The translations under genes and the position numbers were made by a program. Of a stretch of 17,093 nt of DNA, positions 1 to 15,124 are shown one piece after another. The number at the start of each line of letters is the position of its first letter. The first letter of the stretch is position 1. Origin of the DNA: an uncultured Mollicutes bacterium (GTDB taxonomy: Bacteria; Bacillota_I; Bacilli_A; RFN20; CAG-826); contig CAMESA010000012.1 of NCBI GenBank assembly GCA_945935945.1, positions 1 through 17,093 on the forward strand, written 5' to 3'. The notes under the pieces are model-generated. The model was given only the letters and a program-made list of their open reading frames with translations. It did no database searches and was not told the origin of the DNA.

Positions 1-74
1 TCACGGATGAAGAGTTCAACGAGTTAGCTAACTTTGCTAAATATTTAATATCAAAGAGGTCTACTCATGAATAA
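1..74 (+). CDS. C-terminal end of a probable phage repressor (partial)
   Basis: An open frame enters from the left edge (codons start at base 3) and ends with TAA at 72-74. It encodes the last 23 residues of a protein; the core, DEEFNELANFAKYLISKR, is an acidic-then-helical tail. Such tails are common at the C-terminus of small XRE-type helix-turn-helix regulators of Bacillota prophages. The DNA-binding domain is outside the window, so the repressor call is an inference from the tail and from its position directly before an integrase. Its last 8 bases overlap the integrase start at 67, which suggests that both are read from one transcript with coupled translation. Confidence 0.5.
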   Translation, partial: TDEEFNELANFAKYLISKRSTHE

Positions 75-1395
75 GATAATAAGAGTAGCTTGCTACGTTC
101 GTGTGTCTTCACAAGAGCAAAAAATGCATGGATTTTCTATCGGTAATCAAAAAGATAGACTAGTAAATTACATTCACGAACACCCAAATATGCAACTAGT
201 AGGTATATATGCTGATGAAGGTGTTAGTGCTGATAAATTGAATAAAAGATTAGAAATGAAACGCTTGTTGGAAGATTGTGAGCAAGGAAAGATAGATTTG
301 ATACTGTTCACTAAACTTGATAGATGGTTTAGATCCGTACCAAAATATTACAAAATTCAAGAAATACTAGATAATTGTAAGGTTTCTTGGCAAGCCATTG
401 AGGAAGATTATGAAACCCTGACCGCTAATGGTAAATTTAAAGTAAACATAATGTTGTCAGTTGCCCAGCAGGAGCGAGATAGATGCAGCGAGCGTATTAA
501 GTCAGTATTTGAATATAAAGTGAAGAATAAAGAACCTATAAGTGGTAGTACTTGTTTGGGATTTATGATTGCTACTGTAGATGGTAAAAAGCGTTTAGTT
601 CACGATCCTGAAGAAGAAGAGATGGTTAAGGATCTGATCCAATACTACATGATTTATCAAAACTTGGTACAAACCCAAAAGTATATACTTGATAAATATG
701 GTGTGGATCTCGGATATAATTCAATGTATAGGTTATTGCAGAACCCTTTGCTTTATGGACATTATAGTGGGGTTGATAACTTTGCAGAACCATATATAAC
801 GAAAAAGCAATATGATGATCTGCAGATTAAATTTGAGAATAACCAACGCAATCGCAAGAATAGCAATGTATACATACTGTCTAAACTAATCATTTGCCCA
901 CATTGCGGTGGTCGTATGGTCGGTCATATTGACCATCATAAAAGAAGTAGATATCGTTGTGAGCAAAGATATCGCAACAGTAAGCTAGAAAAACAATGCG
1001 ATTTTTCCAAGTCAAAATACGAAAAATATATTATTGATCAATTAAAAGCAAAACTTAATGATTATATGAAAGACTATGTCCTTAAATATGAGATAGAAGA
1101 AAAGAAGACAGTAAATGTTAGTAACATCAAAAAGGAATTAGATAGACTTAACAATCTATACATCAAAGGAAGATTAGAAGAAGATGAATATGAAAAGCGT
1201 TATAGTGAATTGAATTCCAAGCTAGTAATACCAAAGAAGAAAGATACTAGTAATATCAAAGCCTTGCTAAAAGAAAATATATTAGAAGCTTATGATACTC
1301 TTGATCCGGAAGAACAAAGTGCTTTCTGGCATGGATTGATCAAAGCTATCTATATTGATGATGACTTCAATATTACTTCTATCGACTTTTTTTAG
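67..1395 (+). CDS. Large serine integrase (site-specific recombinase)
   Basis: This 442-residue protein should cut and join attP and attB through a covalent 5'-phosphoserine link, integrating the phage. The N-terminal resolvase domain (about 5-145) has the YVRVSS motif, with S14 aligning with the catalytic serine of TP901-1 integrase, and the LDRWFR motif with R86 and R89. A recombinase domain follows (about 155-255). A zinc ribbon has C277, C280, C298 and C311, and a charged, probably coiled-coil segment lies near 350-390. Length is at the short end for large serine integrases. The ATG at 67 has an AAGAGGT ribosome binding site. The gene ends just before the attP-like element at 1404-1451, the usual arrangement in phages with this integrase type. 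Confidence 0.95.
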   Translation: MNKIIRVACYVRVSSQEQKMHGFSIGNQKDRLVNYIHEHPNMQLVGIYADEGVSADKLNKRLEMKRLLEDCEQGKIDLILFTKLDRWFRSVPKYYKIQEILDNCKVSWQAIEEDYETLTANGKFKVNIMLSVAQQERDRCSERIKSVFEYKVKNKEPISGSTCLGFMIATVDGKKRLVHDPEEEEMVKDLIQYYMIYQNLVQTQKYILDKYGVDLGYNSMYRLLQNPLLYGHYSGVDNFAEPYITKKQYDDLQIKFENNQRNRKNSNVYILSKLIICPHCGGRMVGHIDHHKRSRYRCEQRYRNSKLEKQCDFSKSKYEKYIIDQLKAKLNDYMKDYVLKYEIEEKKTVNVSNIKKELDRLNNLYIKGRLEEDEYEKRYSELNSKLVIPKKKDTSNIKALLKENILEAYDTLDPEEQSAFWHGLIKAIYIDDDFNITSIDFF

Positions 1396-1403
1396 GCTTG
1401 TGA

Positions 1404-1451
1404 GTTGTTGTAATTTTATGGTGCCGGTCGGTGCGTGTTAATTACAACTAC
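1404..1451. other. Putative attP site of the serine integrase
   Basis: A long imperfect inverted repeat begins 8 bases after the integrase stop. The arms GTTGTAATT (1407-1415) and AATTACAAC (1440-1448) are perfect complements equally far from a central CCG-GT-CGG (1424-1431). One step further out, GT (1404-1405) and AC (1450-1451) also match. The centre of symmetry falls in the GT dinucleotide at 1427-1428. Serine-integrase attP sites are about 50 bp, with symmetric outer zinc-ribbon-binding arms around a 2-bp crossover, and size, symmetry and position all fit. Both arms match each other, as expected of P and P' in attP and not of a hybrid attL or attR. No second copy is in the window to confirm it. 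Confidence 0.7.
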
Positions 1452-1471
1452 CATTATCCATTAAAAAAAAA

Positions 1472-1497
1472 GCACTTATTTATTAAGTGCCTTTTTT
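1472..1497. terminator. Bidirectional intrinsic terminator between integrase/attP and the cassette
   Basis: GCACTTA (1472-1478) pairs with TAAGTGC (1484-1490) around a 5-base loop. The + strand follows with six T after one C, and the - strand follows with nine T (bases 1463-1471 are all A). It can therefore end integrase transcripts from the left and cassette transcripts from the right. The stop codon of the 61-residue gene (1476-1478) lies inside the stem. Confidence 0.85.
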
Positions 1498-1661
1498 ATA
1501 TTCTCTCTGATCAGCTCTTTGATGTAGCCTTGCTTGTTGCTGATGCTTTGCAAGTGATCTAATATATCGTTATCGGTATTATTGTTAAACTTTAGATAGA
1601 TACCGGTAGTGTTTGCTTTATCGTACTTAGCGTTTGCTCTTCGCTGACTTTCTCTTGCCAT
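1476..1661 (-). CDS. Small basic protein, ribbon-helix-helix-like, function unknown
   Basis: This 61-residue protein begins MARESQRRANAKYDK. A strand-like stretch (TTGIYLKFN, about 18-26) is followed by two helices, ending in a KELIRENIKKALNK tail. The order strand-helix-helix and the basic N-terminus resemble Arc/MetJ-type DNA-binding proteins, and similar short proteins are common in Bacillota mobile elements. It starts one base after the stop of the 140-residue gene, so the two form a coupled pair. Possible roles are autorepressor of the pair, acting at the palindromes near 2109-2138, or an accessory factor for the nearby attP. Neither is shown by the sequence. I recognise no enzymatic domain. 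Confidence 0.75.
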   Translation of the reverse strand: MARESQRRANAKYDKANTTGIYLKFNNNTDNDILDHLQSISNKQGYIKELIRENIKKALNK

Positions 1662-1662
1662 A

Positions 1663-2085
1663 TTATCCGATAATATCTTCTTCTCTGTCTACATTGGAAA
1701 TATGATATCCATTGTCAAGTTTAACTGTTAAAGATCCATATCCATAGTTATCTACAACAACACCTCGCATTGCTTTATCAAATGTAATTTCATCGTTAGT
1801 CTCATCGCAATCATAAGTTCCAGCTTTTACAATAACCTTTTCAAAGGGATATTCAATAGTTTCTACTTCATTTTCATAAATAATATCGCCATCTTCATTT
1901 TCTACAACTTCAAAGATTTTAACTTTTTTTCCTTCTAATACTTGTAGGCTTTTACCTGCAGAAATATTTTTAAAGCATAGATCTGCAAAGTATCTAGCAT
2001 CTTTCATAGTTTCGATCAATTCATCAATAAATCTGATCTCTTTTCCAAATTCATCATAAGCTTTAACTTCGTAACGTGTTTTCAT
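1663..2085 (-). CDS. Hypothetical protein of the att-proximal cassette
   Basis: This 140-residue protein is acidic and I do not recognise it. It begins MKTRYEVKAYDEFGKEIRF. A predicted helix lies around residues 23-43, then come alternating short strands rich in E, D, K and V, and it ends with REEDIIG. There is no signal peptide, membrane segment or cysteine cluster, so it is probably cytosolic. The start is fixed by an AGAGGT ribosome binding site 7 bases before the ATG and by a promoter just upstream (2115-2143). It is the first gene of a two-gene unit separated from the late operon by a terminator. It could therefore be expressed in the lysogen, for example as a lysogenic-conversion or immunity gene; this is inference from layout only. 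Confidence 0.8.
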   Translation of the reverse strand: MKTRYEVKAYDEFGKEIRFIDELIETMKDARYFADLCFKNISAGKSLQVLEGKKVKIFEVVENEDGDIIYENEVETIEYPFEKVIVKAGTYDCDETNDEITFDKAMRGVVVDNYGYGSLTVKLDNGYHISNVDREEDIIG

Positions 2086-2108
2086 TTTATTTACCTCTTT
2101 CTTTTTAC

Positions 2109-2138
2109 ACTTATATTATACTATATAAGTATATACTT
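2109..2138. promoter_or_regulatory. Palindromic operator-like repeats overlapping the cassette promoter
   Basis: A perfect 12-bp palindrome, AAGTATATACTT (2127-2138), fills most of the -35/-10 spacer. A second inverted repeat, ACTTATAT (2109-2116) and ATATAAGT (2123-2130), spans the -10 box. The half-site ACTTAT or its complement recurs, giving overlapping dyads. A protein bound here would block RNA polymerase. The likely binder, by inference, is the small ribbon-helix-helix-like protein of the same transcript or the phage repressor. Confidence 0.5.
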
Positions 2139-2143
2139 GTAAA
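2115..2143 (-). promoter_or_regulatory. Sigma-70-type promoter for the two-gene cassette
   Basis: Read on the - strand, TTTACA (2143-2138) is followed after exactly 17 bases by TATAAT (2120-2115). This is a consensus -10 box and a -35 box with one mismatch. It predicts a start near 2107 and a leader of about 20 bases before the ATG at 2085. Confidence 0.8.
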
Positions 2144-2183
2144 GAATTATTATTGATTTTTGGAGATTTTTGCATAAAAAAAT

Positions 2184-2209
2184 GCCTAGGCTTTTGACCT
2201 AGGCTTTTT
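2184..2209. terminator. Terminator at the end of the late operon
   Basis: GCCTAGG (2184-2190) and CCTAGGC (2198-2204) form a GC-rich 7-bp stem with a 7-base loop. The - strand continues with seven T (A run 2176-2182) and the + strand with five T (2205-2209), so it works in both directions. On the - strand it comes directly after the last lysis-module gene and insulates the late operon from the cassette at 1476-2085. Confidence 0.88.
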
Positions 2210-2535
2210 CATTTTAAAATCAGATAATCCTGAATTTGCTCCTTTACTTTTTTCATAGCTTCCACATCGTTGCCATCAATTCCATGGCTTAATAATGCAA
2301 ACAACGCTTGCATCACTAATCTGTCCTGCTCTTCAAGTTCTGTTATACGTTTATTATCTCTTTCTAGTAGTTCAGTATGTTTCTTGATCAGTTCACTATG
2401 CTCACGGATCAGGTCGTTCTGCAGATCATTGGGTTTCTTTGCCCACTTGAACAACTTGATCAGGTACGCTACACCACCACCAATACATGCTATTGCTCCG
2501 AAAAAAGTCAAAATAGACTGTAGTGATATTTCCAT
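2209..2535 (-). CDS. Single-span membrane protein of the lysis module (possible second holin component)
   Basis: This 108-residue protein has one membrane segment near residues 7-27 (ILTFFGAIACIGGGVAYLIK). A charged coiled coil follows (about 38-70, with QNDLIREHSELIKKHTELL). The C-terminal part is ALFALLSHGIDGNDVE followed by a closing helix. Bacillota phages often carry this architecture next to the holin and lysin, where it is usually annotated as a hypothetical or holin-like protein. The ATG at 2535 has an AAAGGTGG ribosome binding site. It is the last gene of the late operon, 10 bases after the r1t-like holin. It may assist or regulate holin timing; the sequence does not decide this. Confidence 0.75.
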   Translation of the reverse strand: MEISLQSILTFFGAIACIGGGVAYLIKLFKWAKKPNDLQNDLIREHSELIKKHTELLERDNKRITELEEQDRLVMQALFALLSHGIDGNDVEAMKKVKEQIQDYLILK

Positions 2536-2545
2536 AATACCACCT

Positions 2546-2746
2546 TTATTTGTCTAGTTCAGGAAGACCAGCAATGCTTGTTAGTAATGATAGAATGCCT
2601 GACAATAATGAAGCACTTGCTACCATTGCCCAATTTACATCGCCGATTACTGTGCAAGTACCAATCATAGCTACTGCAGTTTGTGCGATAGTTTTGATTG
2701 CCCTAATACCAGCACATCTGATCCATTGTTTTAAATCGTATTTCAT
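2546..2746 (-). CDS. Holin, phage r1t type
   Basis: This 66-residue protein makes the membrane lesion that releases or activates the lysin. An amphipathic N-terminus with [15 protein letters not shown] is followed by [25 protein letters not shown], a layout that strongly recalls the lactococcal phage r1t holin family (AERAIKTFAQ ... VDW ... SILTSLAS). Two hydrophobic stretches (about 18-36 and 40-60) are visible. The ribosome binding site AAGGAG lies in the last codons of the lysin gene, and the ATG at 2746 follows the lysin stop almost at once, so the two are probably translated together. Here the holin follows the lysin, the reverse of the more common holin-lysin order. Confidence 0.85.
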
Positions 2747-2749
2747 AAT

Positions 2750-4066
2750 TTATTCTCCTTCGACTAATTTTTTTATCTCATTGATAATACTAGACTTGTC
2801 TGCGTATTTTTTTTCTAAATCATCATATTTAACCTTTAGTTCGTTGTACATAGCTTCATAGTCTAGCTTTGGCTCTTCTATGGGAGGAGTTGGTTGAGGC
2901 TCTACTGTCTTGTAGAAAGTCAACACATTTGCTATTGCTCTTCCGGTATATAGTATCTTTGTCCCATTCATAATCATCTGGCTAGAACCACCACCATCTA
3001 GGAAGTAAACACCTAATGCACCATATGCTTTGGCAAAGTTTCTACATTGATAGTAAGTTAATCCTGTACCTGTTACAACGAATGCATATTTGCCATCACC
3101 CATGTAAAGTAACATGGTCTTGTTGCTTGCACTATTTAAATCGACTTTAGCAGCCGAAGAAGTAAACTCAATGTCGTTGCCTTCGTGTCTTAATATTGCA
3201 AACGGAGAGCATGCTAGAATTACTTCATCTTTTGATAACCAATAATCACTTGATGGTGTGCAATGTGGTTCGTGGTTTTTATCTATATAAAGACATAGCC
3301 ATGACTCTTGTTTAGGTGCAAAATCATTCTCGAAAGACTGTTCAACACCATAATGTTGTCCGTTGTTTAAATCGAAGAAGTTACAGTTTACCTTGCAATA
3401 GTGAATTAACTCGTTGTCAATCTTGTCGATTGTTGCTCTAGCTTCATAATTTTCTTTGCCAGTTTGTAAAGCTGACATCATACCAATACTTTGGTCGGCT
3501 TTCATTAGGTAGGTATACATAGGCACACCTATCCATGATAACTTTTGATAGCCTTCAATAAAGTTCATATTATCAACCCCTTTCGTAAATTCATAAGGAC
3601 TGTTTAATATAGTCGTATATTCTTCATCAATATAGAAGTAGTCTTCTATATTTATCCAATCTTTTAAACCCCATTCACTAGAGTTAATCTTGGTTTTGGT
3701 AGTTTGTCTACCTTTTCCAATTTCTAAATGAATGTGATTGCCAGTTGCTTTGCCTGTTGTACCTTCGTAGTAGATAGTATCGTTTGGATAAAGAACCAAT
3801 CCCTTTTCTAGAAAGTTGATGTTATTGCAATGTGACATTGCTAGAGTGACATCGTTATCTTTATCATAGAATAATACTGTGTTGGCAAATCCCGTTGTTT
3901 TGTAATGTAAGATACCTATTACCTCAAGTTCGTTGAAAGTTACAAATCTATCTATTCCACTATCCTCGCCTGCTAAATCGTAAGCGTTAAGATTTTTATG
4001 TGAAAAAGAATTGTAACGACCTTGAGATATATTCAGGTATCTCATACCAAATTTTCTTTTAATCAT
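2750..4066 (-). CDS. Two-domain lysin: M23 peptidase plus phosphodiester glycosidase
   Basis: This 438-residue protein carries two catalytic modules. Residues 1-125 look like an M23 (lysostaphin/LytM-type) zinc endopeptidase. SHKNLNAYDLAG supplies H23 and D30, MSHCN supplies H79, and NHIHLE supplies H111 and H113, together the expected zinc and catalytic set. Residues about 165-388 match the phosphodiester glycosidase (NAGPA-like, PF09992) family, with its hallmark LDGGGSSQM at 356-364. A proline-rich linker (390-398) leads to a coiled coil (403-438). There is no signal peptide, so it would accumulate in the cytoplasm until the holin acts. The peptidase should cut peptidoglycan cross-bridges; the second domain may cut a sugar phosphodiester in a wall polymer, which is inference. 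A tail-associated lysin is the alternative, but the place next to the holin favours endolysin. Confidence 0.85.
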   Translation of the reverse strand: MIKRKFGMRYLNISQGRYNSFSHKNLNAYDLAGEDSGIDRFVTFNELEVIGILHYKTTGFANTVLFYDKDNDVTLAMSHCNNINFLEKGLVLYPNDTIYYEGTTGKATGNHIHLEIGKGRQTTKTKINSSEWGLKDWINIEDYFYIDEEYTTILNSPYEFTKGVDNMNFIEGYQKLSWIGVPMYTYLMKADQSIGMMSALQTGKENYEARATIDKIDNELIHYCKVNCNFFDLNNGQHYGVEQSFENDFAPKQESWLCLYIDKNHEPHCTPSSDYWLSKDEVILACSPFAILRHEGNDIEFTSSAAKVDLNSASNKTMLLYMGDGKYAFVVTGTGLTYYQCRNFAKAYGALGVYFLDGGGSSQMIMNGTKILYTGRAIANVLTFYKTVEPQPTPPIEEPKLDYEAMYNELKVKYDDLEKKYADKSSIINEIKKLVEGE

Positions 4067-4137: not shown

Positions 4138-4138
4138 A

Positions 4139-4528: not shown

Positions 4529-4531
4529 AAA

Positions 4532-5989: not shown

Positions 5990-5990
5990 G

Positions 5991-7034
5991 TTAATCCTCC
6001 CATGTTATGCTTTCAGGAATAGGTTCTCCCAATGTTGGATTTATTATTACCCCACCTTGTTCATATACTTCCTCTATCCCTGTAATTCGTTTATTTAAAC
6101 TAATACCCCATGACTCTTTGCGTATCGTCACGATATCGCCAAGATCATAGTCTTTTTTGTATTTAAAGTTGCCCATTGCAGAAGTTTGGTAGTCAAAAGC
6201 TTCAACCTCAACCATTGATGACAATTTCTCCTGACCTCGTTGTTTGAGTGCATCGAGATACTCTTCATTTGTACTAAATTCCATTGACTGAATATCTTTA
6301 GCATCAACAAAAACCTCTCGCAGGTTGTATCCTACGCCACCACCTAATTCTACATAAACTCTATCAGGGCCTTCGCCTTCTCCACCTACAAATACTTTAG
6401 TTTTGTATAGTGTGGAATTGTACGAGTAAGATGTATCATTTATGTTCTCAAAGTTTTCACTAAAAATTACTTTGTTGTTGGCTGATTGAGAAGCACTTCT
6501 ATCAATACCTTTGTAAGTCTCAAAAGTAAGCTTTTTATTTACGAAGTCAGTAGCAACTCTAAATCCAATGTTAGATGTTTTCGATAATTTAGTCATGATC
6601 GTTAGCAAATTCTTCATTGTAGCCTGAAAAGTAACTTTATCAGTAAATCCATTTAAAGCTGTTGTTGATAGATTAGGTATCGGTTCAACAACGCTGATCA
6701 GATCATTCATAGCCACTTCTGTTAGACCATTAAATGAAAAAGTAGACTTTATCAATCGCCTTTCTAGTAAGCTTGATAAAAATCTACCTTTAACAACTAT
6801 TTGCTTTTTGTTTGCTTGATCAGTTAATTCGATACTCTCGATAATACCTACTTCGATACTGCCATCTTTGGCCACCAGGCGCTCTTGCTTAAGTAGATCT
6901 ATGTTATATTGTGTTAATGGTGCGTAAATTTCGAAAGTACCGCTTTCGTAGTACTTCCTTGTCCAGATCAGTGATTGGAAGTTATCAATTACCCCTTTTC
7001 GGTTTAGATCTAAATCATATACTCGTAGTTCCAT
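5991..7034 (-). CDS. Tail protein, siphovirus ReqiPepy6 Gp37-like (baseplate hub)
   Basis: This 347-residue protein begins MELRVYDLDLNRKGVIDNFQ and continues with SLIWTRKYYESGTFEIYAP, the signature opening of the Gp37-like tail family (PF14594). Members take the position of the tail-associated hub below Dit and link the tail tube to the fibres. Later parts show the expected LGDIVTIR block near 300. It lies between Dit and the fibre gene with one-base spacing on both sides, consistent with co-assembly. It has no extra lysozyme or peptidase domain, unlike longer Tal proteins. Confidence 0.85.
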   Translation of the reverse strand: MELRVYDLDLNRKGVIDNFQSLIWTRKYYESGTFEIYAPLTQYNIDLLKQERLVAKDGSIEVGIIESIELTDQANKKQIVVKGRFLSSLLERRLIKSTFSFNGLTEVAMNDLISVVEPIPNLSTTALNGFTDKVTFQATMKNLLTIMTKLSKTSNIGFRVATDFVNKKLTFETYKGIDRSASQSANNKVIFSENFENINDTSYSYNSTLYKTKVFVGGEGEGPDRVYVELGGGVGYNLREVFVDAKDIQSMEFSTNEEYLDALKQRGQEKLSSMVEVEAFDYQTSAMGNFKYKKDYDLGDIVTIRKESWGISLNKRITGIEEVYEQGGVIINPTLGEPIPESITWED

Positions 7035-7035
7035 A

Positions 7036-7911
7036 TTAAACTCCTAAATATTTCTGCCTGAATTTGACTGACACTAGTAGATTATCCTCGCCTTCATCAG
7101 CAAAGTATCTGATCGTGTTATCGCCGCCCAATAACTGAATGTAATTAGATCCTTCTTCTACATATTCATTGATGATGGTTTTTACTCCATCGTGAATAAA
7201 GTACACATTCTTATTATTTTGCATCGTAGAAATAATAACTTCATCGCCATAAACCATGTTTAAAGGTTTCAAAGAAGTGCCAACTTTAATATATGCGTCT
7301 TGTGTAACATTCAACACTTTTGGATTTAAAGCATTGCCTTCTGCTTTGATGGTTATTTCCATTCCAACAAAATCACTTGTTGATGCGTTGTTAATTACCA
7401 TTAATTTATCCTTGCGTTTAGTAGCAAACTGTTCAGATCTAAACGCATGTGGAAAAGTAAATAAACCGTCCCAACCGGTCATGGTTACGTTGGTGTCACT
7501 TGTATCACTGAAATAAGAGTCAGGGCAGATCAAGCTGATAGTAGTTGTTCTGTTTGAATTTCCAACACCATCATTAACGATACTTTCTACATAGTAATCT
7601 ATAGATCGCTTCTCATTAAATGATCCATCGGTTTCTTCATAAATAAGAGTGCAAAGTGTTTTTGGCTTGAATACATCGTATAAACGTTGTCTATTTGCAC
7701 CATGTAGGTTTTTGTTTGACACAGTCAGTACGATATTTCTTGCCTTTACATTTGAACCAATATAAGTTGATCCATCTAGCATACCATTCTCTGTTTGGTA
7801 TACTTCTGCACTAACTTCATATAGCCCGGTAGCTTCTAACAGTACGAAAGGAGAGTATGTCTCGCCAAATATTAAATAGTCATTGCCATTCTTGCAAATT
7901 ATTCTTCTCAT
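7036..7911 (-). CDS. Distal tail protein (Dit)
   Basis: This 291-residue protein should form the hexameric ring that joins the tail tube to the adsorption apparatus. The N-terminal half (RRIICKNGNDYLIFGE through RNIVLTVSNKNLHG and the RQRLYDVFKP motif at about 76-85) fits the siphovirus Dit/tail component family. A linker with CPDSYFSD (130-137) leads to a galectin-like C-terminal half ending in VSVKFRQKYLGV. The position straight after the tape measure is the standard one. The start has a GAAGAGG ribosome binding site. Confidence 0.88.
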   Translation of the reverse strand: MRRIICKNGNDYLIFGETYSPFVLLEATGLYEVSAEVYQTENGMLDGSTYIGSNVKARNIVLTVSNKNLHGANRQRLYDVFKPKTLCTLIYEETDGSFNEKRSIDYYVESIVNDGVGNSNRTTTISLICPDSYFSDTSDTNVTMTGWDGLFTFPHAFRSEQFATKRKDKLMVINNASTSDFVGMEITIKAEGNALNPKVLNVTQDAYIKVGTSLKPLNMVYGDEVIISTMQNNKNVYFIHDGVKTIINEYVEEGSNYIQLLGGDNTIRYFADEGEDNLLVSVKFRQKYLGV

Positions 7912-7912
7912 A

Positions 7913-9850
7913 CTAACCTCTTCCTAGCGCTAGTGCCATTTGTCTAGTAGCATTACGAGTTTGTCTAGCTACCTCATAAGGCGATAGTTCAGTTGGTGCA
8001 TAGATATTTACTGTTTGAGTGTATCCAGCTGGCTGACTGTTGCGTGAAAAGTTTGAATTAATCTGTAGATCTTTAGATAACGGATTAGTGATATCCTTGG
8101 CTACTGAATTGATCTCGCTTAAGATATCCTCTTTACCATCACTAATACCTTGTACTAGGCCCTCATCGATCATTTGCCCAATCCAATACATCTTCTTTGA
8201 AGGAGATCTGATCTCTAAAGTTGATTTAATTGCGTTCCATGCGCTTTGTGCAATGTTTTTAGCTGCATTCCATAAAGAGCTACCCATTGAAGTTACACCG
8301 TTGATAACTCCTTGGATCATATCAATACCGATCTGTTTCCAATCAAACTCGCCAAACGCACTACATACTTCTGTAAATAAATTAGGTAATTCTTCTAGAA
8401 TACCACTCAACAATTCCCCTATCATATCGATACCTGTTTGTACGATCGTTGGGAAGTTGTCTACTATTGATTGAATAAATGTAACTAATGCTTGCAAAGC
8501 TCCTCTTACTACTTCCGGAAGGTTAGCAATGATACCTTGCACTAGGTTACCTATTAACTCAATACCCTTTTGCAATACTAAAGGGAAGTTTTGCAATAAT
8601 ATACTTATAAATGTGTTTAAAGTTTGCAATGCACTGTTGATAATACTAGGTAAGTTATTAATAATACCAACACAAAACTCACTAATCATATTAAAGCCGT
8701 TCTCGATAACTTTAGGGAAGTTCTCTTCCATGAATACAACAAAGTTATCTATTAAAGTTGTAGCTATTTCACCTAATAAAGGTAAACCCGTCTCTAATAT
8801 CCAAGTCATAGCAATAGGTAAGTTTGTTATAATGCCGTCAATCATTGAGGTTAACATTCCAAAGCCTTCAGCTACTAAAGTAGGATATTGTTCTTGTATA
8901 AAAGTTACTAGGTTATTAATCAGATTACTAGCTCCCACTTGCAACGTTGGCAACGCTGTACTAATTCCCGTAACAATAGCTTGAGGTATATTGCTAGCTA
9001 AATTAACTAACATAGGGATTAAATTACCCGCTACGAACGTAGTAGTTGACTCTACTAATTGAGTCATTTGCGTCTTAACGTCTCCGCCGGTTGTCAATGC
9101 TCCCATAAAGTTTAAGAAAGCAGCCTTCATCGAATTAAAAGACCCCTCAAAAGTTGTACTTGCTTCTTTGGCAGTAGTTCCTGTTACACCTAATTCAGTT
9201 TGTATTACATGAATAGCATTGTAAACATCTGCTAGATTGCTGATGTCATATTTTACTCCTGATAGCTTTTGAGCATCAGCAAGCAATCGTTGCATTTCAG
9301 TTTTAGTTCCGCCATAACCAAGTTTAAGGTTATCTAACATAGTATAATTTTGCTTTGCAAATCCTTGATATGCATTTTGGATTGACTGCATGTCTGTACC
9401 AAATTTGTTTGCATTATCAGACATATCAACAAGTGCCATATTTGCTACTTCTCCGGCTTTTTCAGTGTCTCCACTTAATCCCTGGAGTAAGCTAGCACTA
9501 AATGACGTTACCGTCTCCATATACTCGTTAGCGCTTAATCCGGCTGTCTTATAAGCCTCATTAGCATATTTTACCATCTTGTCATAACTATCTTTGTAAA
9601 GCGTCTCAATACCGCCTAGGGACTGTTGTAGCTTGCCCCCTTCGGTAAGTGAGCTAGTTATAAATTTACCTACACCGGCGCCAACGATAACCTTTTTTAG
9701 AGTGCTGACTAAATTAGATCCTATTGAGTTCCCGCTAGTTTGACCGGCTTTTTTGCTCTCGCCACCTAGTAATTTAGTAATAGAGCCTTGAATTCCGTCG
9801 GCTGAGGGTATAATTTGGACGTATGCTTTTCCCAAAGAAGTTTTAGCCAT
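7913..9850 (-). CDS. Tail tape measure protein
   Basis: This is the longest gene of the window, 645 residues from the ATG at 9850. A GTG three codons upstream keeps the frame open, but it lies inside the ribosome binding site AGGAGGT, which is spaced 7 bases from the ATG; I therefore chose the ATG. It is a scaffold for tail-tube assembly and sets tail length; at about 1.5 angstrom per residue this implies a tail near 95 nm. It has a typical N-terminal region (KAYVQIIPSADGIQG), an amphipathic helical body, and hydrophobic tandem repeats of about 44 residues in the middle (NFP-x-G-x-GIIxNLP pattern). Near the C-terminus is the LEIRSPSKKM motif common to tape measures. Its start overlaps the preceding chaperone frame. 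Confidence 0.93.
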   Translation of the reverse strand: MAKTSLGKAYVQIIPSADGIQGSITKLLGGESKKAGQTSGNSIGSNLVSTLKKVIVGAGVGKFITSSLTEGGKLQQSLGGIETLYKDSYDKMVKYANEAYKTAGLSANEYMETVTSFSASLLQGLSGDTEKAGEVANMALVDMSDNANKFGTDMQSIQNAYQGFAKQNYTMLDNLKLGYGGTKTEMQRLLADAQKLSGVKYDISNLADVYNAIHVIQTELGVTGTTAKEASTTFEGSFNSMKAAFLNFMGALTTGGDVKTQMTQLVESTTTFVAGNLIPMLVNLASNIPQAIVTGISTALPTLQVGASNLINNLVTFIQEQYPTLVAEGFGMLTSMIDGIITNLPIAMTWILETGLPLLGEIATTLIDNFVVFMEENFPKVIENGFNMISEFCVGIINNLPSIINSALQTLNTFISILLQNFPLVLQKGIELIGNLVQGIIANLPEVVRGALQALVTFIQSIVDNFPTIVQTGIDMIGELLSGILEELPNLFTEVCSAFGEFDWKQIGIDMIQGVINGVTSMGSSLWNAAKNIAQSAWNAIKSTLEIRSPSKKMYWIGQMIDEGLVQGISDGKEDILSEINSVAKDITNPLSKDLQINSNFSRNSQPAGYTQTVNIYAPTELSPYEVARQTRNATRQMALALGRG

Positions 9851-10199
9851 GTTGTCCACCTCCTCGTTTTATCCATTCTTCTTCAAAATCAGAAGCTTCA
9901 ACGCCCTCGTATTCTTCGTTATCTGTTAGTTTGTTGTAAATAGATTTAGGTCTATTAATACCCAAACGACCATCTTCACTTTGAAACCATATTAGGGTGT
10001 TTAAGCTATCTAATATTAAAGATAAGAGTAGGTCACTTGATCCTACTCTTGTATTTGCTATCTTCTTTTTTATCCTTGAATTGTCCTCTAGTCCACACGC
10101 AAGTATAGCTATATAAGAAGCTTTGTATTCATACATATTGTATATATGATATGTTTGTGCCATATCACAAATCAAAGCGTTCCTATCAACTGTGATCAT
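9843..10199 (-). CDS. Downstream (T-like) part of the tail chaperone pair
   Basis: This frame has 118 codons from the ATG at 10199, but the bases before that ATG (CTAATCAATCTAGTCTAC) contain no ribosome binding site, and the open frame continues upstream to the slippery heptamer at 10217-10223. It is therefore best read as the second half of the frameshift product. It contains helical segments (YKASYIAILACGLEDN and RVGSSDLLLSLILDSLNTL) and an acidic then basic end (EEEWIKRGGGQHG). Its last 8 bases overlap the tape measure start at 9850, which couples the two. Confidence 0.7.
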   Translation of the reverse strand: MITVDRNALICDMAQTYHIYNMYEYKASYIAILACGLEDNSRIKKKIANTRVGSSDLLLSLILDSLNTLIWFQSEDGRLGINRPKSIYNKLTDNEEYEGVEASDFEEEWIKRGGGQHG

Positions 10200-10480
10200 G
10201 TAGACTAGATTGATTAGTTTTTTCCTTCTTCGCCCAATTTACCCATCAATTCGGTTATCAGGTTCTGGAATTCAACTACTGGTACCCTACCGTTGTACGC
10301 TTCTCCAAGCTTATCATAAATTTTCTTTTTATCTTCTTTAGAAAAAATAGCGCTAGTTAATCTAGCAATGCTCAAAAAGTTGCCATCTTCGATATCTGCA
10401 AGGAAGTCTACTATTCTCATATCGTCGAATACATCTTTTTTTACGTCAACAGTGACGCCACAATTCAATTCAATCTTCAT
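9843..10480 (-). CDS. Frameshifted tail assembly chaperone fusion (G-T analogue)
   Basis: The 88-codon upstream frame ends with GGA AAA AAC TAA. The heptamer A-AAA-AAC (10223-10217) is a classic -1 slippery site lying directly before the stop. After a -1 slip the ribosome reads CTA ATC AAT CTA GTC TAC and joins the downstream frame at ATG 10199 with no stop between. This gives a 212-residue fusion (88 + 124). The downstream frame has no ribosome binding site of its own, which supports expression only as a fusion. The layout matches lambda G/GT: short form plus fusion, placed between the major tail protein and the tape measure. Both forms should hold the tape measure soluble during tail assembly and be absent from the virion. 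Confidence 0.82.
10214..10480 (-). CDS. Tail assembly chaperone, short form (G-like)
   Basis: This 88-residue, mostly helical protein begins MKIELNCGVTVDVKKDVFDD, typical of Bacillota tail chaperones that sit after the major tail protein. It is soluble and acidic, without membrane segments. The AGGAGA ribosome binding site fixes the ATG at 10480. It ends at a slippery AAAAAAC followed at once by TAA, so a share of ribosomes should continue into the downstream frame. The short form normally greatly outnumbers the fusion in this family; the ratio here cannot be read from sequence. Confidence 0.82.
   Translation of the reverse strand: MKIELNCGVTVDVKKDVFDDMRIVDFLADIEDGNFLSIARLTSAIFSKEDKKKIYDKLGEAYNGRVPVVEFQNLITELMGKLGEEGKN
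10217..10223 (-). promoter_or_regulatory. Programmed -1 frameshift heptamer
   Basis: On the - strand the bases read A AAA AAC in the frame of the 88-residue chaperone, followed by TAA. Both tRNAs can re-pair after a one-base slip. A purine-rich GAAGAAGGA directly upstream may act as a weak internal Shine-Dalgarno stimulator. I saw no strong downstream stem-loop. Confidence 0.8.
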
Positions 10481-10491
10481 TTAATTCTCCT

Positions 10492-11028
10492 TTATGCTAA
10501 AGTGATATATTCTTTATGGAATGTTGGGCAAGCGATCTCCATTGGGAAACCAACTGCCTGATTAGCTTTATAAGCTACATCTCCATTTAAAATAGGTTTA
10601 GCATTATCAATTACAATTCGTTTAGCTGTACCATTCTTCATAAGCGTATCTACTACAAATACGCATGCATCTAATTCGTTACCTGTAGCTGTTACCGTAA
10701 TATTCTTTTCATTTGCTGTAACATTACTTTCTCCGTAAACAAATTTAAGAGTATCAACGTTTAATGCCTCGATTAAAGTCAATTTAGCTGTTTCGCTCTT
10801 TTCTGTTTGAGAAGAATCAACCACAGTTCCACCCCACTCTTTAATATTTTCACTTGATGTAGCTGTTGAAAAAGTAAAGCCATCTTCACTTACATAGCCT
10901 AAGTTCTTAAATTTAGTGTCTAAAGGTGTTGTAGCGTCTGTAGGTAAAGTTGTTCCTAAAGGTGCATAAAATACTGCTCCACTTACTTTAGGTTTAGCAG
11001 TAGTAACATTTTTTACTTCGTTTGCCAT
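10492..11028 (-). CDS. Major tail (tube) protein
   Basis: This 178-residue protein should polymerise as hexamer rings into the tail tube. It begins MANEVKNVTTAKPKVSGAVF and APLGTTLPTDATTPLDTKFKNLGYVSEDG follows, the usual opening of Bacillota major tail proteins, where an ordered offset is read out against the field TPLD...LGYVSEDG. Strand-rich segments continue through GNELDACVFVVDTLM and it ends without an Ig-like decoration domain. The AGGAGA ribosome binding site precedes the ATG. It lies between the tail completion gene and the chaperone pair, as in other siphoviruses. Confidence 0.9.
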   Translation of the reverse strand: MANEVKNVTTAKPKVSGAVFYAPLGTTLPTDATTPLDTKFKNLGYVSEDGFTFSTATSSENIKEWGGTVVDSSQTEKSETAKLTLIEALNVDTLKFVYGESNVTANEKNITVTATGNELDACVFVVDTLMKNGTAKRIVIDNAKPILNGDVAYKANQAVGFPMEIACPTFHKEYITLA

Positions 11029-11030
11029 AT

Positions 11031-11366
11031 TTATTCTCCTATCACATTAAATATTGCTTGATACCTATATCGTTTGGTATCCTGATCAGTGTAATTGTAG
11101 TCACTATTTAACGAGCAATCACTAACTTCGTTAAGTGCCACTATATTTCTCATAGCTTGCTTTACCTGATCATTTAATTTGCAAGCTTCTAAAAGACTAG
11201 ATCCATATGATTGAATAGCAATAGTAGCTTGTTCGATAAAGTCTACTTCGCTTGATCCTGTCTTTTCTATGATACAAAAAGAAGCAGGCTCATTTGCCTG
11301 ATGCTCAGCGTAACAAGGTACATCTAAATTGTCGTTTAAATATTTAATAATAGTAGCTTCAATCAT
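11031..11366 (-). CDS. Tail completion / tail terminator protein
   Basis: This 111-residue protein begins MIEATIIKYLNDNLDVPCYA and has alternating helices and strands (SFCIIEKTGSSEVDFIEQA, then IAIQSYGSSLLEACKLNDQV). It resembles the small tail terminators (SPP1 gp17 / lambda U-like) that cap the tube and join it to the head. Location directly before the major tail protein supports this. The AGGAGGT ribosome binding site is strong, and the start overlaps the preceding stop by 4 bases. Confidence 0.75.
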   Translation of the reverse strand: MIEATIIKYLNDNLDVPCYAEHQANEPASFCIIEKTGSSEVDFIEQATIAIQSYGSSLLEACKLNDQVKQAMRNIVALNEVSDCSLNSDYNYTDQDTKRYRYQAIFNVIGE

Positions 11367-11608
11367 TTAGTACCTCCTAATGCTTTTAATAAGGTGTTAT
11401 TTTTCAAATTGTCTTTGAGACTAGTAGAATTGATACATCTAATTACCACATTTGCCCTGACTTTCCCAACACTGACTTGTGTTTGGTAGTCTTTCGCATT
11501 TCCAGTATTAGATTGTACCTGTTGGCCATACTCATTTAATACACTTTGTATCTCTTCTGATCTCAACAATTCGCCAACACCTTTTTTATCCAATACAAAT
11601 TTATTCAT
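11363..11608 (-). CDS. Small HK97 gp10-like head-tail / minor tail protein
   Basis: This 81-residue protein has an N-terminal helix GVGELLRSEEIQSVLNEYGQ, a strand pair with VGKVRANVVIRC, and an end in SLKDNLKNNTLLKALGGTK. The R-A-N...N-N-T-L-L-K-A-L pattern is common in short HK97 gp10-like proteins placed between the head closure and tail terminator genes. It probably helps the head-tail junction mature. The ribosome binding site is weak (GAAAG) and the start overlaps the preceding gene by 8 bases, so translation is likely coupled. Confidence 0.68.
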   Translation of the reverse strand: MNKFVLDKKGVGELLRSEEIQSVLNEYGQQVQSNTGNAKDYQTQVSVGKVRANVVIRCINSTSLKDNLKNNTLLKALGGTK

Positions 11609-11945
11609 AACTTTCAGCTAAATATTGTGCATTCCAAGGAGAAGGTACTAATTCATCTATACCCCTTTTGGCTGGTGTAAAGATATGGTAGCGTTTGCCC
11701 TCAATAATGACAAACTGATCTTCCCATTTGTTAGTATCTCCTTTAGGAATAGCCAATATATGAACGTCTTTTTTTCCGACTAAATTTGTAGTATCGATAA
11801 TATCATCAGTTAAATTTGTACTCCAAAGTACGCCCTTAACTTCAATTTGTTTTTCTTCATAAATCGGCTGATTGAATTCATCAGTACCGATTTCAATTTT
11901 GTTGATCAAAGTGATCGTTTGACCACGATTAAACACCCACGCCAT
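11601..11945 (-). CDS. Head closure / head-tail joining protein (stopper)
   Basis: This 114-residue, strand-rich protein begins MAWVFNRGQTITLINKIE and has VEVKGVLW-like and DVHILAIPKGD segments, closing with KRYHIFTPAKRGIDELVPSPWNAQYL. This is the profile of SPP1 gp16-type head closure proteins, which seal the filled capsid and provide the site for the tail. There is little ribosome binding site before the ATG at 11945 and it overlaps the connector gene by 17 bases, pointing to coupled translation. Confidence 0.75.
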   Translation of the reverse strand: MAWVFNRGQTITLINKIEIGTDEFNQPIYEEKQIEVKGVLWSTNLTDDIIDTTNLVGKKDVHILAIPKGDTNKWEDQFVIIEGKRYHIFTPAKRGIDELVPSPWNAQYLAESYE

Positions 11946-12321
11946 AAATATCTACCATACCTATCCGTTGTCTGTTTAATCCTAATAGTTTTAAATCCTT
12001 GTTTAGTATGCTTAAACCACCACCGGTATTCACATATGTTCCACTCCAAGTATATCCAAGTGCGCTTTGTGACTCCTGGGAAAGTGAAGAGTTACCTTTG
12101 TCTAGTTCCCTGATAACTACATTGCAGGTAGCTAGTTTTGCATTGTTCTTCATATCCTCATCATCAATAACTTCTTGGTTTAGATCTCTGCCGTATTCTT
12201 TGGCCAAAGTCCTGAAATAGCTTGAAGTGTATGTTAACAGCTGTTCAACTTTGGCAAGCTGATCAGCATTAAGTGATCCGTATAGGTTCATTACATCTTC
12301 AACTGTTGCAAAGTTTTCCAT
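11929..12321 (-). CDS. Head-tail connector (gp6/gp15-like adaptor)
   Basis: This 130-residue protein opens with FATVEDVMNLYGSLNADQLAKVEQLL and a helix TYTSSYFRTLAKEYG-like block, the pattern of HK97 gp6 / SPP1 gp15 adaptor proteins. These form a ring below the portal. The C-terminal part (LGYTWSGTYVNTGGGLSILNKDLKLLGL) also fits. The AAGGAG ribosome binding site fixes the ATG at 12321. It is the first gene after the capsid-gene hairpin, so its level may be reduced compared with the capsid protein. Confidence 0.82.
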   Translation of the reverse strand: MENFATVEDVMNLYGSLNADQLAKVEQLLTYTSSYFRTLAKEYGRDLNQEVIDDEDMKNNAKLATCNVVIRELDKGNSSLSQESQSALGYTWSGTYVNTGGGLSILNKDLKLLGLNRQRIGMVDIYGVGV

Positions 12322-12341
12322 GCGGTACTCCTTTCGAAAAA

Positions 12342-12359
12342 AAGGGGATTGCTCCCCTT
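12342..12359 (-). terminator. Hairpin after the major capsid gene (probable transcription attenuator)
   Basis: On the - strand AAGGGG (12359-12354) and CCCCTT (12347-12342) form a 6-bp stem with a 6-base loop, followed by a run of T (12343-12337 are all A on the + strand). It begins four bases after the capsid stop codon. The form is that of an intrinsic terminator inside the operon. Partial read-through would give much capsid protein and less of the downstream connectors. Confidence 0.75.
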
Positions 12360-12363
12360 AAGA

Positions 12364-13152
12364 CTATTTATAGAATACTGTTTCAGGTTTAGAAACCATG
12401 TAACCGCAAACTTCACGACCCTGAACAGCACTAGCACCGATGTGCTTGCCATCTTTTAGATCGACGATACCAACAGGTACTGCCCAAGCATTAACAAAGT
12501 GACAGTATGTAGAGTTACCTACGATGAAGTGTTTATCAGTTAGGTTTGCAGTTTCATATACTGGTGTTCCGTCTAGCATACCAATAGCACCATTCTTTAG
12601 ATCTGACATGTCTGCAGCACTGATCCATGTAGGGTCTTTTTTGATTTCTGCTCTTAATTTAGGGCTGATTGCGATCCACATTGCTCTTGGGTCTACTTTA
12701 GCGCTTCTAGCTTCTGCTAATGTGTCTAATAATGCGTTAACGATCTTAGTTTCACTTGTTGCTGGTGTTGTGTGGTTGCTTTCATTTGTCAATAAAGCAA
12801 TTAACTTCATATCGATATCATTACCCATTGCATATCCAGCTGAGTCTAAACGGTCAGCGATCATTCCATCAGGTACAGCTTCAGCTACAAATCCATCGAT
12901 TAATTCATTTACTGCTAGATCAACATCACATACAAGTGTTTTGTAAGTTGTGTTAGGTGCTGTCATAGCTACACCGTTAGTAACATCATAAGCGCTAACT
13001 ACTGCTTCGTTTCTCACAGGGATTTTTACAGCGCCTGCTACTGGGTTGCCTTCGTATCTTCTGTTAAATAAGCCTTGGAAAATAGAAGTTGCTCTTAATT
13101 TAGCTTCAACCAAAGCTGAATATTTTTCTTGTAATTGAGTATTTTGTGCCAT
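12364..13152 (-). CDS. Major capsid protein (HK97 fold)
   Basis: This 262-residue protein builds the icosahedral shell. It begins MAQNTQLQEKYSALVEAKLR and continues with FQGLFNRRYEGNPVAGAVKIPVR, the usual opening of a capsid family common in Bacillota siphoviruses. Central helices (AVNELIDGFVAEAVPDGMIADRL) are followed by an A-domain-like block (DTLAEARSAKVDPRAMWIAISP) and the C-terminal VGIVDLKDGKHIGAS. I see no N-terminal protease-cleaved delta domain, consistent with the separate scaffold gene upstream. The strong AAGGAG ribosome binding site and the hairpin behind the gene fit high expression. Confidence 0.88.
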   Translation of the reverse strand: MAQNTQLQEKYSALVEAKLRATSIFQGLFNRRYEGNPVAGAVKIPVRNEAVVSAYDVTNGVAMTAPNTTYKTLVCDVDLAVNELIDGFVAEAVPDGMIADRLDSAGYAMGNDIDMKLIALLTNESNHTTPATSETKIVNALLDTLAEARSAKVDPRAMWIAISPKLRAEIKKDPTWISAADMSDLKNGAIGMLDGTPVYETANLTDKHFIVGNSTYCHFVNAWAVPVGIVDLKDGKHIGASAVQGREVCGYMVSKPETVFYK

Positions 13153-13164
13153 AATTTTTCTCCT

Positions 13165-13641
13165 TTATAACTCTAAATTTGGGTTCATTTCTTTGAAAAT
13201 CTTTGTCACACCATCTTCTGCACTTGTTTTAGTTGTAGATGCTTGTGGCGCAACATTTAATGAACTCTTGATGTTAACACTCATTAATTTGGCAAGCTGT
13301 TCTGCGTCCTTTTGAATTTCTTCTTCAGTTGTTCCTGTTAATCTTGAAGCCATTTCAAAAGGAAGTCCATTGTTCAGACAAATTCTCATTTTTACCGAGT
13401 TGGTCTCGTATCGTTTGATCTGATCATCTTTTTCTTGAATAGATTTGTTAAGGTTATCAATCTGTGAAGCGTAGTCAGTGCTACTCTTATTTAATTCTTC
13501 TATCTTTTTTGAAAAGTCATCATTTAGCTTTGCTACATCTTCAGGAGACATATAGCCTTCATACTTCTTTGCTTCTCTAGCTAATCTATCCTTGATAGCT
13601 TCGTCAAATTGTTCTTGTGTTTCAATCTTTTTAAATTCCAT
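13165..13641 (-). CDS. Scaffold protein (DUF4355 / GP20-like)
   Basis: This 158-residue protein is rich in E, K and Q with a long coiled coil (about 38-80). After it, LNNGLPFEMASRLTGTTEEEI fits DUF4355-type phage scaffold proteins, which guide capsid assembly and then leave. The ATG at 13641 is preceded by GGAGG at 5-base spacing. A TTG four codons upstream is open in frame but overlaps that ribosome binding site, so I chose the ATG. It lies directly before the capsid gene, as expected. Confidence 0.85.
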   Translation of the reverse strand: MEFKKIETQEQFDEAIKDRLAREAKKYEGYMSPEDVAKLNDDFSKKIEELNKSSTDYASQIDNLNKSIQEKDDQIKRYETNSVKMRICLNNGLPFEMASRLTGTTEEEIQKDAEQLAKLMSVNIKSSLNVAPQASTTKTSAEDGVTKIFKEMNPNLEL

Positions 13642-13663
13642 ATAATCCTCCAAATTCCTATTT

Positions 13664-13708
13664 ATACCGCATAGTTGCGTATATTAAAAGCGCCTTGAAG
13701 AAAGCGCT
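13664..13708 (-). promoter_or_regulatory. Two hairpins between the terminase and scaffold genes
   Basis: The gap before the scaffold holds two adjacent inverted repeats. AGCGC (13708-13704) pairs with GCGCT (13693-13689), followed by a short T run, and spans the terminase stop; it could be a weak attenuator. Next to it, ATAC-GCA (13682-13676) pairs with TGC-GTAT-like bases (13671-13664) with one bulged base and a 4-base loop. They sit just before the scaffold ribosome binding site and may set mRNA processing, decay or attenuation at the border between packaging and capsid genes. Confidence 0.45.
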
Positions 13709-15116
13709 AATAATCAAATTTAGTTTTTGTTTTTGCTTTTGAAGTCTTACAGATCCAATAAGCAAATACGCATGATTCCATGATACAAATATCAATAGAC
13801 TCTTTTATTGTTTTAAATCCAAAACCACCATTTGTGCCGATCAACCTTTTTTGACAGTTACTTACTGAATTAGTTAACGATGGCTGGCCCATATGACATA
13901 TAGCCTTGTTTTCAAGGCCATTCATGAACGTTTCACTAGCCATTAATACTTCTTTAACTGTTGGGTAAATCGGCTTTATTTTGAGTTCTTTTGACTTGTA
14001 CGCTTGATTTAATATCTCTTGTTGTCCTTGAGAACAGTCAACAACTAACTTCTCGATATCTGCTTTGTTGCAAAAATCATAGATCCATTTATTGCCTTGA
14101 CTTTGTGGCCTACAAGTAAAGGTTTCAACGAAAACTTTTTCCCCTGATTTAACAGCTATAGTCAATGCTACGTTAGTTCCATCTTTGCCAAACTTAACGC
14201 CAGCGTAAATTCTGCCATTTAGTTCAGGTAGATTGTCTACTTTCAGTTCTTCCCATTGTCTACGACTTATAAAACTCTTCAGGTTGGATTTAGTCCAATA
14301 TCCTAAACGCTGAATGTTGAAGTCCAGATCATCAGTGCCAATCTCATCTTGAATTATTCTTTCTGTTAAAATAGTTCCCAATGATGGATTGGTTTGATAC
14401 CATAATTCAATATCGTTGACTGCACTTAGCTGATCTACACTCCATTCGGCCCATGCTGAGTTGTTGGTGTTACCACTCAATACATCTTTTCTAAACTTAC
14501 TAAAAACAGTACCACTTGATACCGGAGTATTGGGTGTTCCACAGAAAATCGTTTGTGGGTTCTTACTAGAAGACACCACATATTTAAGTGTAGTTTCTTG
14601 TGTATCTTTGTACTCCTGGGCTTCATCAATCACGAGCAAGTCGAAACCTTCTCCTAAACCACCTGTATCAGTTCTTGTTCTAAAAGATATAGATCCGTTA
14701 GTTTCAAACAATATGATCTGTTCCAAACCGTATTGTCTAGCAACTTTGAAGTCATCGCCTTCTTTTAAACCACTATCTGTTATAAGTTTAAGCAGCCTTT
14801 TGAATGCACTTGATGAAGTTGCTGTTCTATGAGCGGTATGAAGCATTGCTTCTCCATTGAAAAGTCCATAGATCTCTCTGATGGCCACAACTTCATTTTT
14901 TCCATTTCTTCGAGGAACAGAATAACCAAATTTAGTATGGACCCACAAGCCATCATCATTGTAGGCTAGAATATCGTTGATCAGTAGCTGCTGCCACTCC
15001 TGGGCGATTCTTCCACTTTTTTCATATAAGTCTATTGCTTCTTTGCCATGTGAATTAACATAAGGCAGTATTACTTCGTTCGTTGGAATTTGGCGACCTT
15101 TTCTTACGTCGCTCAT
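13707..15116 (-). CDS. Terminase large subunit (ATPase/nuclease)
   Basis: This 469-residue DNA-packaging motor cuts concatemers and pumps DNA into the prohead. The ATPase domain shows a Walker A-like VPRRNGKNE (67-75), Walker B LLVIDEAQE (160-168, with D164 and E165) and the coupling motif FCGTPN (191-196). The C-terminal nuclease domain has VVDCS (D360) and KESIDICIMES (D442, E447). The usual first nuclease motif GvDl reads GVKFGKDG here, with K308 where the aspartate is normally found and D312 nearby. The AGGAGGAG ribosome binding site fixes the ATG. Unusually, the gene follows the portal and minor head genes. Confidence 0.93.
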   Translation of the reverse strand: MSDVRKGRQIPTNEVILPYVNSHGKEAIDLYEKSGRIAQEWQQLLINDILAYNDDGLWVHTKFGYSVPRRNGKNEVVAIREIYGLFNGEAMLHTAHRTATSSSAFKRLLKLITDSGLKEGDDFKVARQYGLEQIILFETNGSISFRTRTDTGGLGEGFDLLVIDEAQEYKDTQETTLKYVVSSSKNPQTIFCGTPNTPVSSGTVFSKFRKDVLSGNTNNSAWAEWSVDQLSAVNDIELWYQTNPSLGTILTERIIQDEIGTDDLDFNIQRLGYWTKSNLKSFISRRQWEELKVDNLPELNGRIYAGVKFGKDGTNVALTIAVKSGEKVFVETFTCRPQSQGNKWIYDFCNKADIEKLVVDCSQGQQEILNQAYKSKELKIKPIYPTVKEVLMASETFMNGLENKAICHMGQPSLTNSVSNCQKRLIGTNGGFGFKTIKESIDICIMESCVFAYWICKTSKAKTKTKFDY

Positions 15117-15124
15117 AACTCCTC

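What the first reader, a model, noticed from the sequence alone, without database searches (positions are those of the whole stretch)
1404..1451. Symmetric, apparently intact attP next to the integrase: the window reads as a free or circular phage
The arms 1407-1415 and 1440-1448 are exact complements at equal distance from a CCG-GT-CGG core, as expected for P and P' of one attP. Integrase and repressor lie on the left and phage late genes on the right. In a simple prophage this junction would be split and one side would be host DNA. Hence the source is probably a free phage, an excised circle, a virome contig or a tandem lysogen. GT at 1427-1428 is the predicted crossover dinucleotide.
Basis: partly seen in the sequence, partly recalled or inferred. 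Interest (0 to 1): 0.7.

Follow-up and report, generated by a model that had tools for sequence, protein, structure and literature searches.

The report
Intact phage attachment site beside integrase
This is the unbroken docking site that a bacterial virus uses to insert itself into its host's chromosome; related viruses have the same kind of site cut in half inside genes for cellular pumps, so this copy was most likely read from the virus in its uninserted form.

Summary
1407-1415 and 1440-1448 are exact 9-bp complements, each 8 bp from CCG-GT-CGG, just after a large serine recombinase gene. Bare dyad score is not beyond chance, but a matrix from relatives' half-sites (window excluded) ranks this site first in the window: 19.6 bits, next 11.6, best of 200 simulated windows 16.3. 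The interpretation also holds. In integrated relatives the corresponding site is broken at the central GT: integrase plus left arm, then an ABC-transporter ATPase gene cut at ADEPT|G (10 of 11 pattern matches; 9 of the 11 beside a related integrase). One convincing opposite end, with an endolysin gene, was found (L109). In the window, integrase, both arms and lysis genes are continuous: the unintegrated arrangement. Virion, circle, concatemer or tandem lysogen cannot be told apart. No integrated copy of this phage was found. Predicted attB: the Pro-Thr-Gly codons of DEPTGNLD in an ABC ATPase; the crossover dinucleotide would be the invariant first two bases of the Thr codon. That motif is present in 40 of 55 genomes of the family of the MAG carrying a 98% identical integrase fragment. 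A new member of a known kind, with a testable target.

The parts
1..74 (+). 3' end of the HTH (Cro/C1-type) repressor gene
   Evidence: Window base 1 matches L001 6189; L001 5915-6262 is the whole gene, Pfam HTH_3
67..1395 (+). large serine recombinase (integrase), 442 aa: Resolvase and zinc beta ribbon domains
   Evidence: Pfam PF00239 2.2e-27, PF13408 9.1e-10; 3099 proteins at E <= 0.001, best 120 listed
1407..1415 (+). attP left (integrase-side, P) arm; its GTTGTAA lies 14-20 bp from the crossover dinucleotide
   Evidence: same register as GATGTAA in L005 and GTACTAA/GTACTAT in other relatives
1424..1431 (+). attP core CCG-GT-CGG; GT at 1427-1428 is the predicted crossover dinucleotide
   Evidence: Integrated relatives pass from phage to host sequence at a CCN-GT-NGG core
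1440..1448 (+). attP right (lysis-side, P') arm
   Evidence: exact complement of the left arm; right half scores 9.6 bits
1472..1490 (+). terminator-like hairpin just beyond attP; could end the integrase transcript in the unintegrated form (inference)
   Evidence: consensus scan only
1476..2746 (-). small ORFs (61, 140, 108 aa) and r1t-type holin (2546-2746)
   Evidence: PF16945 8.9e-13, phrog_443 holin
2750..4066 (-). ORF in the usual endolysin position: phosphodiester glycosidase (NAGPA) and an M23-like part below Pfam's cut-off
5991..17061 (-). late genes: minor tail protein (5991-7034), tape measure (7913-9859), major head protein (12364-13152), terminase large subunit (13707-15116), portal (15799-17061), with further ORFs between
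   Evidence: PHROGs matches of the five named ORFs

Best explanation
1404-1451 is the attP of a temperate tailed phage, used by the large serine recombinase encoded just upstream. A recombinase dimer binds the two half-sites, zinc domains on the outer GTTGTAAT arms and recombinase domains nearer the core; the enzyme cuts both strands at the central GT, and exchange with a GT-centred attB inserts the phage (mechanism inferred from the known family). The host attB is most likely the codons Pro-Thr-Gly of the DEPTGNLD motif of an ABC-transporter ATPase gene, CCN-AC-NGG on the coding strand, where AC (GT on the other strand) is the fixed first two bases of the Thr codon. Because integrase, both arms and lysis genes are continuous, the window was read from DNA in the unintegrated arrangement.
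For: Exact arms and core. Homology matrix ranks the site first. Of 75 related-integrase loci with at least 90 bp after the stop (of 81 tried), 9 have CCNGTNGG within 80 bp (about 1.1 expected from a background of 0.0142 per 80 bp), and these 9 are either a dyad (7, with 9-12 of 14 arm pairs) or an ABC-ATPase junction ending ILADEPT (2). A pattern for left arm + core + DEPTG-type host half finds 11 loci, 10 with an ABC ATPase frame cut at ADEPT and 9 with a related integrase ending just before the site; the host halves of the two tested are Pfam ABC_tran at 6e-34 and 2e-34. L109 shows the opposite end: open frame GNLDSKTSMDVILLMQ... (read by eye as the ATPase remainder), GT core, right arm TTAGTAC, then an endolysin-like gene at 2.4e-54. 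RG-TP1 gives the same gene order in an induced phage. 40 of 55 genomes in the family of the MAG with a 98% identical integrase fragment carry the target motif, 66 matches against 0 for the reversed control.
Against: No integrated copy of this phage was found. The exact core CCGACCGG in such a motif occurs in 0 of 55 family genomes, so bases next to the dinucleotide would not match the host. Most relatives do not show this form of site: only 11 of 81 have a CCNNNNGG centre with 9 or more of 14 arm pairs within 120 bp of the integrase (one of them, L083, looks like a terminator), and records with other core dinucleotides (CT, TT, GA, CC, AA; TG, AA) show that targets differ in the wider family. 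The closest integrated relative is only 45% identical in the integrase. The ADE codons were part of the junction pattern; the open ATPase frame before them and the adjacent integrase were not. No integrase was found on the L109 or L099 contigs; the 50-residue host piece of L109 has no Pfam match (in the frame I gave).
Confidence: 0.83

Rival explanations
1. attP is right and unsplit, but the window comes from a tandem (multiple) lysogen, where an internal junction also carries integrase, whole attP and lysis genes.
For: The local sequence would be identical; a 98% identical integrase fragment is binned in a bacterial MAG (L001).
Against: Lysogens of this kind are usually single copy (general knowledge, no call); neither half-site was found in the MAG, whose contig ends inside the integrase gene, so the MAG says little either way.
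Confidence: 0.06
2. The site is an attP, but this integrase uses another host gene; the ABC ATPase target belongs to its relatives only.
For: Cores vary in the wider family; CCGACCGG is absent from the family's DEPTGNLD motifs (0 of 55).
Against: The nearest integrated relative (L005, 45%) shares the GT core, the arm register and the ABC target; both GT-core junctions in the set not chosen by target are in ABC ATPase genes (2 of 2).
Confidence: 0.2
3. The dyad is a transcription terminator or a chance palindrome downstream of the integrase gene.
For: Dyad score alone is ordinary; the scan lists 1421-1434 as terminator-like.
Against: The tail after 1434 is GTGTTAATTA, not a run of T; a better terminator-like hairpin lies at 1472-1490; arms and core match the attachment sites of relatives in register.
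Confidence: 0.03

Closest known systems
Prophage in IMGVR_UViG_2847190230_000001 (L005)
   Same: Integrase 45% identical over the full length, GT core 30 bp after the integrase stop, arm GATGTAA in the same register
   Different: Integrated: the right half is an ABC ATPase gene cut at ADEPTG; not the same phage
Ruminococcus (Mediterraneibacter gnavus) phage RG-TP1, PQ571303
   Same: Integrase - dyad site - small ORF - endolysin - small ORF - holin
   Different: 33% identical integrase; core TT, so another target is expected
Clostridioides phage phiCD27 and its site-specific recombinase
   Same: 35% identical integrase, dyad of the same layout with core CCA-CT-TGG right after the gene
   Different: Core CT; its attP/attB paper (Williams 2013, PubMed 23699063) is cited in PMC4430133 and PMC4009436 but was not held
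Listeria phage A118 (LI) integrase and attP (PMC3783163, passages read)
   Same: Serine integrase; attP with zinc-domain motifs at the distal end of each half-site and a central dinucleotide
   Different: Motif given there (TTTAGTATC) differs from the window's arm

Membership tests
Large serine recombinase (phage integrase) | N-terminal resolvase catalytic domain followed by zinc beta ribbon domain | tested here: met
   PF00239 and PF13408 above cut-off
Large serine recombinase (phage integrase) | Recombines attP with attB at a 2-bp core | not testable with these tools
   Needs an assay; inferred from junctions in relatives
attP of a large serine recombinase | Imperfect dyad of about 50 bp next to the integrase gene | tested here: met
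   Left arm begins 12 bases past the end of the stop codon
attP of a large serine recombinase | Corresponding site split at the central dinucleotide in integrated copies | tested here: met
   In relatives only: 10 of 11 pattern matches; L005 and L026 also appear without that pattern
attP of a large serine recombinase | Split in an integrated copy of this very phage | tested here: inconclusive
   No copy found: 0 of 55 genomes for each half; metagenome contigs could not be scanned
ABC-ATPase DEPTG-targeting integrase group | GT core, CCN-GT-NGG, arm G[TA]NSTA[AT] at 14-20 | tested here: met
   CCG-GT-CGG and GTTGTAA on both sides
ABC-ATPase DEPTG-targeting integrase group | Observed insertion into an ABC ATPase gene | tested here: inconclusive
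   Seen in relatives, not for this phage; target motif present in 40 of 55 candidate host genomes

The most novel reading that the evidence does not exclude
A group of phage serine integrases aims at one protein motif, the Pro-Thr-Gly of DEPTGNLD in ABC-transporter ATPases, with the crossover dinucleotide fixed by the invariant first two bases of the Thr codon, so that one enzyme could use any of several paralogous genes and hosts of any codon usage; the window's phage is a member.
Probability: 0.6. Interest if true: 0.5.

Novelty: new member of a known kind. Interest (0 to 1): 0.36.

Why it matters
It turns a guessed palindrome into an attachment site with a predicted partner gene, which would let prophages of this group be found and bounded, and it offers an integrase with a short defined site pair. 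It also suggests how a phage can keep a target across hosts: the core sits on codon positions that cannot change without changing a conserved motif of an ABC ATPase. Loss of an ATPase copy on lysogeny would be a testable host effect.

Tried and rejected
Plain dyad statistics: not beyond chance, so not used as proof. Walker-A idea: for relatives with CT, TT or GA cores I supposed insertion into GP[SN]G of ABC ATPases; two scans of viral contigs gave 36 matches, none on a contig stretch with an integrase of the family (tblastn), and 0 matches, so it has no support. Close relatives of the integrase: none in viral contigs by six peptide words of the single sequence, one truncated copy in genome contigs (L001), 1 of 55 family, 1 of 160 order and 2 of 395 sampled class genomes, the MAG itself counted each time (cut-offs 1e-60, 1e-70, 1e-70). 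L005's opposite end: the record starts 43 bp beyond the 3' end of an amidase gene (PF01520), so attR lies outside it. L099 is an ABC junction whose phage side has lysis-like genes (by eye) and no integrase; it does not fit the simple orientation. L100 (attL pattern) and L110 and L111 (attR pattern) look like chance matches (the last two judged by eye). Of 10 phage or plasmid records looked at, 7 showed a CCNNNNGG dyad (phiCD27 and a C. difficile plasmid have the same one); the Eubacterium plasmid and Enterococcus phage Efs 1-1-1 showed no convincing one, and the phiFL1A record ends at the integrase. Dropped before counts: 6 of 81 integrase loci with under 90 bp after the stop; one duplicate half-site. 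Not independent: L041 and L042 have identical sites and L030 and L035 similar ones, all counted among the 9; L106 and L098 are the same contigs as L005 and L026, counted among the 11. Literature: (listings and start of abstracts); passages found by term in PMC10083194, PMC8637289, PMC4430133, PMC4009436, PMC3783163; no paper read through. Nothing I saw describes the DEPTG target, but most subscription papers are not held.

Full report
Check. The window reads GTTGTAATT (1407-1415), 8 bp, CCG-GT-CGG (1424-1431), 8 bp, AATTACAAC (1440-1448). The coordinates and the symmetry are as stated. Symmetry by itself is weak evidence: 14 of 22 outward pairs match, four other centres in the window do as well, and 100 of 100 simulated windows reach 14 or more.

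Homology test. The gene at 67-1395 is a large serine recombinase (Resolvase plus zinc ribbon). I fetched 80 viral loci with relatives (the best 80 of 234), one more from a genome search (L085) and ten records of the phage and plasmid collections. In 11 of the 81 loci a CCNNNNGG centre with at least 9 of 14 arm pairs lies within 120 bp of the integrase stop (one, L083, looks like a terminator); most relatives do not show this form. Seven of the ten records show it, for example CCA-CT-TGG in phiCD27, CCA-TT-TGG in RG-TP1 and CCG-GA-AGG in an Enterococcus faecium plasmid record. L040 has the window's own core, CCG-GT-CGG. Training sites for the matrix were chosen by hand from these lists and from the junctions. 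The matrix, from 36 distinct half-sites with nothing from the window, puts the window's best site at 1427 with 19.6 bits, against 11.6 for the second and 16.3 for the best of 200 simulated windows. CC next to the core was part of how many training sites were picked, so it adds less than it seems; the rest of the score comes from the arm.

What happens on integration. L005, the nearest viral relative (45%), has the integrase followed 30 bp later by a half-site in the same register (GATGTAA) and CCT-GT-AGG, and then an ABC-transporter ATPase gene on the opposite strand that is cut at ADEPTG. L026 is alike. Of 75 integrase loci with at least 90 bp after the stop, 9 have CCNGTNGG in 80 bp, where about 1.1 are expected from the background rate of 0.0142; 7 are dyads (9-12 of 14 arm pairs) and 2 are ABC junctions. 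A pattern scan for such junctions gave 11 loci; in 10 the reading frame is an ABC ATPase ending at ADEPT, and in 9 a related integrase (28-45% identical) ends just before the site. The pattern asked for the ADE codons but not for the ATPase or the integrase. In the tenth, L099, the phage side carries lysis-like genes and no integrase was found. The scan for the opposite junction gave 3 loci, of which L109 is convincing: an open frame GNLDSKTSMDVILLMQ... that I read as the ATPase remainder, GT, the right arm, then an endolysin-like gene. No integrase was found on that contig.

Reading of the window. It has integrase, left arm, GT, right arm, terminator-like hairpin, small ORFs, holin, a lysis-position ORF, tail, head and terminase genes in one piece. 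On the left the MAG contig L001, which overlaps the window by 758 bp at 97% identity, continues into an early region with an HTH repressor. That is the circular gene order, opened elsewhere than at attP. Packaged, circular and concatemeric DNA all look like this, and so would a tandem lysogen; a simple prophage would not.

Target. On the coding strand the host core is CCN-AC-NGG, the codons of Pro-Thr-Gly in DEPTGNLD. The crossover dinucleotide AC is the first two bases of Thr, which are the same in all Thr codons. In the 55 genomes of the family of the MAG that holds a 98% identical integrase fragment (residues 1-230), 40 carry at least one GCN-GAY-GAR-CCN-ACN-GGN-AAY-YTN-GAY, 66 matches against none for the reversed control. 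The exact core CCGACCGG in that motif occurs in none of the 55, and neither half of the window's site is found in them with up to 3 mismatches. So the target is inferred from relatives.

Mechanism. Shown: the site, its match to relatives, the break at GT in relatives. Inferred from the known family (A118 integrase, PMC3783163, passages): zinc-domain contacts with the outer arms and exchange at the central dinucleotide; dimer binding, double-strand cuts and the need for a directionality factor to excise are general knowledge and were not tested. I did not look for that factor.

Literature. Ten searches showed no description of this DEPTG target; not all of them asked for it. [quoted passage not shown] The phiCD27 attB paper was not held; I recall, without a source here, that its attB may lie in an ABC transporter gene, which would make the target less new.

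Verdict. The finding is real and its interpretation is right as far as it can be tested. It is a new member of a known kind, made more useful by a specific predicted target.

Noticed in passing
window 2750-4066: ORF in the endolysin position has a phosphodiester glycosidase (NAGPA) domain and an M23-like part below Pfam's cut-off, to my knowledge an unusual pairing for a lysin.
   Followed up: no
L099 (IMGVR_UViG_3300010163_001947), junction near 1241-1274: ABC ATPase junction whose phage side bears lysis-like genes (by eye) instead of an integrase, so gene order and GT orientation are reversed or the integrase lies elsewhere.
   Followed up: partly
L001 (CAMELE010000082.1) 1-6946: Early region of a close relative (97% over 758 bp) binned in an uncultured Mollicutes MAG; the contig ends inside the integrase gene.
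   Followed up: partly
L087, L088, L089, L092, L093, L094: Relatives keep CCN-NN-NGG but change the central dinucleotide (CT, TT, GA, CC, AA, TT), which suggests switches of target within one integrase family.
   Followed up: partly
L004 (G001 contig 37, 1490-1991): The same MAG holds 502 bp that are 73% identical to the window's late region, perhaps part of a second related prophage.
   Followed up: no
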